The notes under the pieces are model-generated. The model had not been told where the DNA came from. It did not search any database and saw only the letters and a program-made list of their open reading frames with translations. The translations under genes were made by a program, and so were the position numbers. From Methanothrix sp. (lineage in GTDB: Archaea; Halobacteriota; Methanosarcinia; Methanotrichales; Methanotrichaceae), in the NCBI GenBank assembly GCA_030611205.1, contig JAUWQF010000003.1:1-42917 (forward strand): 42,917 nt of DNA. Direction: 5' to 3'. How positions within the stretch are numbered: the stretch's first letter is position 1; each line of letters opens with the position of its first letter. This document shows positions 6,671 to 42,812 of this stretch, one piece after another.

Positions 6671-6732
6671 CCCTATCCAACAGTCTCACCATCAAACTTT
6701 AATAGCATACCGCCTTACCCATTTTCCATATG

Positions 6733-6856
6733 GTACATAAAGTATAACTTTATGTGCCCAAGTAAATGTGAGCGTAAGTGAGCATTTTCTTGTAGTACAT
6801 AAAGTATAACTTTATGTACTCGAGTAAATCCGACCGAAGGGAGGATTTTCTCGTTA
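6733..6856 (+). repeat. Composite palindrome-hairpin repeat, locus A (two 62-bp units)
   Basis: GTACATAAAGT-ATA-ACTTTATGTRC at 6733-6757 and 6795-6819, each followed by 37 nt with an AGTAAAT..ATTTTCT hairpin (6758-6794, 6820-6856). Confidence 0.85.
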
Positions 6857-7192: not shown

Positions 7193-7204
7193 TAGATTTT
7201 TATT

Positions 7205-7229
7205 GTATATGATGTATTACATTATATAC
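7205..7229. repeat. Solitary 25-bp near-palindrome related to the composite repeat
   Basis: GTATATGATGT-ATT-ACATTATATAC, same 11-3-11 layout, between convergent genes. Confidence 0.65.
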
Positions 7230-7336
7230 TAGTTAGTCGGGCTTTGCCGTTTGGCTCCTTTGAGCTTTGTAGGGAGGATGTCCCCGGGAGACTCCTTATT
7301 GAGATGCCCTATCTTTGGTGCATAACAGAAGGGCTC

Positions 7337-19739: not shown

Positions 19740-19854
19740 GTAGCTCTTGACCTCCTTTTCATCTGAGTATGGTGGTCTAAGTTGTCATCGGGATACATAA
19801 AACCCTTTCGGTTTTCATCCAGAAATCTAACACACGGCTTTTTTTTAAAAAATT

Positions 19855-19879
19855 ATATATAATGTACAACATTGTCCCC
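19855..19879. promoter_or_regulatory. Half-conserved 25-bp palindrome with TATA-like core upstream of cdhA
   Basis: ATATATAATGT-ACA-ACATTGTCCCC; AATGTNNNACATT core as at 25976-26000; 116 bp upstream of cdhA start. Confidence 0.45.
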
Positions 19880-25913: not shown

Positions 25914-26000
25914 GTATACAATGTTCTATATTATATACAACGAGTAAATCCTCCCGTTGATCGGATTTACTCTGAGCATACAATGTTCTACATTATATAC
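25914..26000 (-). repeat. Composite palindrome-hairpin repeat, locus B (palindrome-hairpin-palindrome)
   Basis: 25-mers at 25914-25938 and 25976-26000 (62-bp offset) around GAGTAAATCC..GGATTTACTC at 25942-25972. Confidence 0.85.
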
Positions 26001-26046
26001 AATAACAAAAAGATGCGTTCCACCAGACCTATGTCAGAGGACGGGA

Positions 26047-26352
26047 CTAATAAGATGCCAGAACCAAACCCACGATATCCCGGTGGCCGGGTTTGAGAGA
26101 ATAGACGTTGTGATCACCCGAAACGTCGATGCTCAGGATGCCCAGTCTGGTATTCATCAATCCCACCATCGCAGAAACCCCACGATAGCTCACGTCGAAG
26201 CCTTCCTTGTCCAGATGGGTGTAAACGTCCTCTGTAGTGAAGGATTTGTCGTTCAAGAATAGCGTCAAAACCGCTTTTCTGATGCCCATTCCATCGCGTT
26301 TGAGGTAGTTCCTCAGACGCTCCTGAACCTGTTCTCCTGCGCTAGCCTCCAT
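26047..26352 (-). CDS. DUF2551-like winged-helix protein
   Basis: 101 aa; VQERLRNYLKRDGMGIRKAVLTLFL...TTEDVYTHLDKEGFDVSYRGVSAMVG. Confidence 0.65.
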   Translation of the reverse strand: MEASAGEQVQERLRNYLKRDGMGIRKAVLTLFLNDKSFTTEDVYTHLDKEGFDVSYRGVSAMVGLMNTRLGILSIDVSGDHNVYSLKPGHRDIVGLVLASY

Positions 26353-42750: not shown

Positions 42751-42812
42751 CAGACCAAAATGCTCGCTTATGCTCGCATTTACTTGAGCACATAAAGTTA
42801 GTGCGACAAGAA
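42751..42812 (-). repeat. Composite palindrome-hairpin repeat, locus C (single degenerate unit upstream of mtrE)
   Basis: Reverse complement: ...ACTTTATGTGC + TCAAGTAAATGCGAGCATAAGCGAGCATTTTGGTCTG, near-identical to 6747-6790. Confidence 0.75.

What the first reader, a model, noticed from the sequence alone, without database searches (positions are those of the whole stretch)
25914..26000. Locus B: same palindrome-hairpin-palindrome layout with the same 62-bp offset but different palindrome sequence
GTATACAATGT-TCT-ATATTATATAC (25914-25938) and GCATACAATGT-TCT-ACATTATATAC (25976-26000) flank the perfect hairpin GAGTAAATCC..GGATTTACTC. Reverse-complemented, the hairpin matches locus A unit 2 almost completely including the loop: GAGTAAATCCGA(C/T)C(G/A)A(A/C)GGGAGGATTT(T/A)CTCGTT, 4 differences in 34 nt. 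The flanking palindromes are alike within each locus but differ between loci (GTACATAAAGT vs GTATACAATGT), which suggests the palindrome pair is homogenised or selected as a unit while the hairpin core is shared. It lies about 100 bp upstream of the HcyBio gene and about 50 bp after the DUF2551-like gene.
Basis: partly seen in the sequence, partly recalled or inferred. Interest (0 to 1): 0.75.

Follow-up and report, generated by a model that had tools for sequence, protein, structure and literature searches.

The report
Two-hairpin mobile repeat of methane archaea
The palindrome-hairpin-palindrome is one copy, plus a leftover piece, of a roughly 61-letter jumping DNA unit with no genes that is scattered through this methane archaeon and several methane-eating relatives, lands next to runs of T, and builds tandem rows because its own end looks like its landing site.

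Summary
The sequences are at the stated coordinates, but the natural unit is different. It is an oriented 60-63 bp unit, palindrome (P) then hairpin (H), and locus B is one unit plus an extra P. The genome has at least 167 units and its sister species (Methanosaeta sp. UBA204) at least 150. Comparing the two genomes shows precise solo-unit presence/absence at three well-resolved sites and one-unit differences in array length at five loci. There is no target-site duplication. The left flank is specific (TTTYTYR), the right flank is not, and the unit's own 3' end (TTT[T/A]CTYG) mimics the target, so units insert behind units and form 61-62 bp arrays. A test of this passed: units followed by another unit carry the target-like T far more often (41/45 versus 91/151, p=5e-5). 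P subtypes do not match within arrays (12/25 versus 13.2 expected), which refutes homogenisation. Clear matches occur in 33 of 240 genomes of the class, including an ANME-2b genome; P's sequence turns over while its pairing persists, and one 26-nt H sequence recurs identically in four genomes. It resembles haloarchaeal PATEs and REPINs. No parent transposase was found, so a single-strand (HUH-type) mechanism is inferred, not shown.

The parts
25941..26002 (-). Locus B: one complete P-H unit (62 bp)
   Evidence: Covariance model R1 match, 77.4 bits, E=1.5e-15
25976..26000 (-). P palindrome (subtype B) of that unit
   Evidence: Direct reading; 25-mer, inverted arms with a 3-nt centre
25941..25974 (-). 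H hairpin (subtype H1) of that unit; 3' end reads TTTACTCG
25914..25938 (-). Extra P without an H after it; the orthologous P is the only one in the sister genome, where an insertion sequence interrupts it
26003..26013 (-). T-rich target tract (TCTTTTTGTTA on the minus strand) directly left of the unit
   Evidence: Direct reading; target consensus TTTYTYR
6731..6792 (+). Locus A unit 1 (P subtype A, H subtype 2)
   Evidence: R1 match E=6.6e-15
6793..6853 (+). Locus A unit 2 (P subtype A, H subtype 1); the sister species has three units here
   Evidence: R1 match E=7.4e-19
7203..7230 (+). Solo P, no H, directly after a T run
42757..42800 (-). Truncated unit (half of P plus H2)

Best explanation
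This is a non-autonomous mobile element made of nothing but two hairpins, P then H. SHOWN: the unit is dispersed, it differs by whole units between sister genomes, its boundaries are precise, no target duplication is made, it sits 3' of a T-rich TTTYTYR motif with no rule on the right side, and its own 3' end carries the same motif. SHOWN by sequence turnover: both hairpins are kept by compensatory change. INFERRED: a transposase acting in trans recognises the folded P-H strand, cuts 3' of TTTYTYR at the target and 3' of the same motif at the unit's end, and joins the unit as a single strand or single-strand circle, as HUH transposases of the IS200/IS605 kind do. Because the 3' end recreates the target, later insertions land behind (or in front of) earlier ones and build head-to-tail arrays of 61-62 bp pitch. 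The enzyme has not been identified.
For: Copy number and layout: at least 167 units in the genome, at least 150 in UBA204 (G061 = UBA204), spacing 60-63 bp. Mobility: clean presence/absence at L084 vs L185 and L094 vs L151, and at L105 vs L150 (the last also explicable by slippage); one-unit array differences at window 6732, L151:9992, L145, L146 and L137; in SMBSF02 a unit interrupts a tnpA copy exactly at AGGTTTTTCG| where a related tnpA copy of HR1 reads straight through. Target: T at -7, -6, -5 and -3 in 77-90% of 172 copies, right flank near random. Self-targeting: units followed by another have T rather than A at column 59 in 41/45 versus 91/151, p=5e-5; at L137 and L145 the extra unit is of another subtype than its neighbour, so it is not a tandem duplicate. 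Folding: 94.2% and 93.2% of cells paired, covariation above all 500 shuffles; in P, G-T wobbles on the P-H strand outnumber A-C mismatches 197 to 34, 8 pairs versus 1, sign p=0.04.
Against: No transposase carries P/H ends. Y1 TnpA (PF01797) is a single broken copy in this genome and is not flanked by P/H where it was examined. It was not found in Zod_Metabat.786, which has 21 units (an incomplete genome). TnpB is missing from six of eight carriers. No base-level covariation between the H 5' arm and the left target was found (p=1.0), contrary to a simple IS608-type guide rule. P and H differ in sequence, whereas IS200/IS605 end hairpins are usually alike. The strand signal in P weakens to 98:76 (p=0.11, both helices) when four subtype-fixed pairs are left out.
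Confidence: 0.66

Rival explanations
1. RNA-mediated mobility: the P-H strand is transcribed, folds, and is inserted by a reverse transcriptase (group II intron type), with the left TTTYTYR acting like a 5' exon-binding site.
For: Left-only target specificity and no target duplication also fit reverse splicing. H keeps RNA-like features: a GA/GA internal loop in 134 of 171 distinct units and GAA or GUAA loops. G-T wobbles favour the P-H strand in P. A group II intron fragment, just below the family's gathering score, lies near one array (L027).
Against: The unit is far too short to be a ribozyme, no reverse transcriptase association was tested or seen, and a group II fragment at a contig end may be coincidence.
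Confidence: 0.13
2. Circular P-H units integrate by a site-specific recombinase, integron-cassette-like, with folded single-strand sites.
For: Insertion of exactly one unit, a junction of the G|TT type, head-to-tail arrays, folded-strand signature.
Against: Targets are degenerate T-rich tracts spread over the genome, not one attI, and the units carry no genes. No integrase was sought.
Confidence: 0.07
3. Not mobile by itself: a structured RNA or DNA element whose number changes by slippage and unequal recombination between repeats.
For: Array lengths differ by one unit between sisters; two near-identical units at L146 look like a tandem duplication; L105 could be slippage between 8-bp repeats.
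Against: Solo units are present or absent at sites without flanking repeats (L094, L084), a gene copy is interrupted (L267), and copies are dispersed and target-specific.
Confidence: 0.07
4. A paired protein-binding operator or chromatin site.
For: Near-perfect palindromes in intergenic DNA; only 15 of 188 arrays overlap a called gene.
Against: P turns over in sequence while keeping self-pairing; there is no within-locus matching; copies move.
Confidence: 0.05

Closest known systems
PATEs (palindrome-associated transposable elements) of Haloquadratum walsbyi (PMC3119063)
   Same: No terminal inverted repeats, palindromes near both ends, no target duplication, no gene, mobile although intact tnpA is scarce, terminal-only forms of about 52 bp, palindromes preferred by other inserting elements.
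   Different: PATE palindromes match those of resident IS605-type elements; here P and H differ from each other and from the resident IS200 elements examined. Head-to-tail self-targeted arrays and a recurrent identical H sequence across families were not found in the PATE passages read.
REP / REPIN elements with RAYT transposases (PMC3116915, PMC2817692, PMC6006769)
   Same: Short, intergenic, high copy, folded in single strand, arrays, precise unit excision.
   Different: REPINs are inverted REP pairs with a GTAG-type foot and a RAYT nearby; here the order is fixed and direct, the end motif is CTYG, and no RAYT is associated. TnpAREP-like classes were not observed in Archaea in PMC6006769.
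IS200/IS605 (IS608, ISDra2) ends
   Same: Target motif flanks only the left end, a similar motif closes the right end, no duplication, subterminal hairpins.
   Different: Hairpins reach the very ends and differ from each other; no tnpA inside; no guide-target covariation detected.

Membership tests
PATE | No terminal inverted repeats | tested here: met
   Ends TTGTA... and ...CTYG are not inverted copies
PATE | Palindromes close to the termini | tested here: met
   P and H fill the unit
PATE | No target duplication | tested here: met
   L094/L151, and L267 against uninterrupted L266; a 2-bp TT ambiguity at L084
PATE | Too short to encode a transposase | tested here: met
   60-63 bp
PATE | Terminal palindromes related to a resident IS605-type element | tested here: not met
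   tnpA loci of this genome, UBA204 and other carriers lack P/H ends
IS200/IS605 family | Encodes Y1 TnpA | tested here: not met
   No coding capacity; trans-acting TnpA not excluded
IS200/IS605 family | Left-flank target motif plus like motif at the right end, no duplication | tested here: met
IS200/IS605 family | Guide sequence pairs with target (covaries) | tested here: inconclusive
   H 5' arm pairs with the unit's own 3' end but does not covary with the left target
REP/REPIN | GTAG/CGTC-type tag and inverted REP pair | tested here: not met
   Direct order, CTYG end
REP/REPIN | Associated RAYT | tested here: not met
   No recurrent transposase-like ORF within 1.5 kb of arrays
Classical MITE | Terminal inverted repeats and target duplication | tested here: not met
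Rfam RNA family | Match above gathering score | tested here: not met
Integron attC/cassette | Integrase and attI | not tested
   No integrase search made

The most novel reading that the evidence does not exclude
A minimal mobile element consisting only of two dissimilar hairpins, shared by several families of methane archaea and moved by an enzyme of no known transposase family (possibly through an RNA form), with tandem arrays generated because the element's end is its own target.
Probability: 0.25. Interest if true: 0.8.

Novelty: new variant of a known kind. Interest (0 to 1): 0.58.

Why it matters
It replaces a puzzling regulatory-looking motif with a mobile element that can be followed between sister genomes base by base. 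It offers a simple, testable rule for how short repeats form regular arrays (the end equals the target), extends transposase-free single-strand-type elements to methanogens and ANME archaea, and poses a sharp question: which enzyme moves a 61-bp unit whose H sequence recurs identically across families while its P turns over.

Tried and rejected
Within-locus homogenisation of palindromes: rejected. Known RNA family: no match. IS200 TnpA as the parent: its loci lack P/H ends, and in SMBSF02 tnpA copies are targets. IS91-type Y2 transposase: no match, but the control rang nowhere, so inconclusive. TnpB/IS605 parent: no match in six of eight carriers. A longer parent element with P and H separated by a gene: P...H gaps were either a recurrent ~84-bp nested insertion or long, unlike stretches. 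Guide-target base covariation: none. Insertion at gene 3' ends (poly-T terminators): rejected; the gene left of the unit is more often on the opposite strand, 47:29 and 50:21. Plasmid, phage and viral collections: no match to the tested unit.

Full report
CHECK OF THE OBSERVATION. The palindromes, hairpin, 62-bp offset and locus A similarity are exactly as described. Searching the window's own genome (2.19 Mb, 181 contigs) with the 99-bp stretch gave 55 places, and a pattern for the hairpin alone gave 17 with none in the reversed control. Lining up the copies shows that the repeating unit is P (25 nt) - 3 or 4 nt - H (about 31-34 nt), always in that order on one strand, alone or in arrays. At locus B the unit is 25941-26002 on the minus strand and 25914-25938 is an extra P.

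ANATOMY. P occurs as GTACATAAAGT-ATA-ACTTTATGTGC (A) and GTATATAATGT-ATA-ACATTATATAC (B); H as GTAAATCC-GA-CC-GAA-GG-GA-GGATTTAC (H1) and GTAAATGY-GA-GC-GUAA-GC-GA-RCATTTTC (H2). Both fold strongly (z about -6 to -7) and the pairing is kept by two-sided changes, more so across families (11 pairs, 0 of 500 shuffles, slid controls far lower). In the P helix, deviations from Watson-Crick pairs are G-T on the P-H strand 197 times against A-C 34 times; by position 8 against 1, sign p=0.04. In H the two are about equal (70 and 61), so the strand argument rests on P alone. Much of the P count comes from subtype-fixed wobbles: leaving four such pairs out, it is 98 to 76 over both helices, p=0.11.

MOBILITY. 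The only other genome of the genus reached, Methanosaeta sp. UBA204 (identified; NCBI family Methanotrichaceae), is about 92.6% identical in alignable stretches and carries at least 150 units. Of about 20 syntenic places compared, several are unchanged and others differ by whole units. Clean cases...TTTTA|TTGTAC...TTTTCTTG|TTCCG against ...TTTTA|TTCCG (L084/L185)...TTTTTTTA|TTGTAT...TTTTCTTG|CTTCTC against ...TTTTTTTA|CTTCTC (L094/L151, no duplication possible)...TTTTCTCG|TTGTAT...TTTTCTCG|ATCATC against ...TTTTCTCG|ATCATC (L105/L150, also explicable by slippage). Window locus A has two units against three in UBA204. At locus B, UBA204 has only the single P, interrupted by an insertion sequence with an 8-bp duplication TGTAGAAC, so the unit at 25941-26002 is the part that differs. 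In the distant archaeon SMBSF02 a unit interrupts a tnpA copy at AGGTTTTTCG|, while a related tnpA copy in the ANME-2b genome HR1 (L266, from G064) reads straight through; two further degenerate SMBSF02 tnpA copies (L269, L275) have P or a P-H unit at the same point.

TARGET AND ARRAYS. Over 172 first or solo units the left flank reads TTTYTYR, while the right flank is nearly random. The unit ends TTT[T/A]CTYG, the same motif. The T form breaks one pair of the H stem (column 34 with 59) yet is common here and nearly universal in a cross-family sample (24 of 27 unpaired there). If the end acts as a target, units with T should more often be followed by another unit: 41 of 45 against 91 of 151, p=5e-5. 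This fits arrays formed by insertion behind existing units; at L137 and L145 the extra unit is of another subtype than its neighbour. Insertion in front is also seen in the geometry of locus B.

P subtypes agree in adjacent units no more than by chance, 12/25 against 13.2. The spacing rule holds; the homogenisation rule does not.

DISTRIBUTION. R1 at E<=1e-4 rings in 33 of 240 genomes of the class and in 10 of 39 genera: both genomes of this genus but none of the other members of its family that were searched, many genomes of another family that includes Ca. Methanomarinus HR1 (ANME-2b) and SMBSF02, and two genera of a third family, one of them with Zod_Metabat.786. A 26-nt stretch of H occurs identically in UBA204, Zod_Metabat.786, SMBSF02 and HR1. 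Whether this is horizontal transfer or old inheritance was not tested. No match in plasmids, phages or viral contigs.

MECHANISM. One-sided target, matching 3' end, no duplication and conserved folding point to HUH single-strand transposition, as described for IS200/IS605 (PMC6006769). This is inference: no enzyme was found. TnpA (PF01797) is present in most carriers tested, but also in some non-carriers, and not with P/H ends; in this genome it is one broken copy. PATEs of Haloquadratum pose the same puzzle, with strain-specific insertions although nearly all tnpA genes are disrupted (PMC3119063). The guide-target rule of IS608 was not detectable.

CLASSIFICATION. By the features in the PATE table of that paper the unit qualifies; by relation to a resident IS605-type parent it does not. 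I therefore call it a new variant of a known kind rather than a member.

Noticed in passing
L153:2426, L177, L172, L222, L072, L171 and others: An insertion sequence with ends GTAACTACTCAGGTA repeatedly sits in the centre of P palindromes (8-bp duplication at locus B of UBA204), as well as elsewhere.
   Followed up: partly
L089, L075, L131, L164, L166, L194 (P...H gaps of 84-90 bp, one of 160): A second short element, starting about CATGATACCCAGTCTC, is inserted again and again at about the same place inside the H stem.
   Followed up: partly
Ends of UBA204 contigs L094, L096-L102: Eight contigs share an identical 268-bp end that contains a P-H unit: a larger repeat carrying the unit along.
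   Followed up: partly
L001, L002, L013, L144: Units flanked by tandem GCGAATGAAC / TTAGCGTTCA repeats in several places.
   Followed up: no
G000 and UBA204 arrays: The gene on the P side of an array is on the opposite strand more often than not (47:29 and 50:21), from a rough gene caller.
   Followed up: no
window 26047-26352, minus strand: The DUF2551 protein also shows a sub-threshold similarity to the FUR regulator family (E=4e-4).
   Followed up: no
window 19840-19875: An AT-rich P-like stretch after a T run, without H.
   Followed up: no
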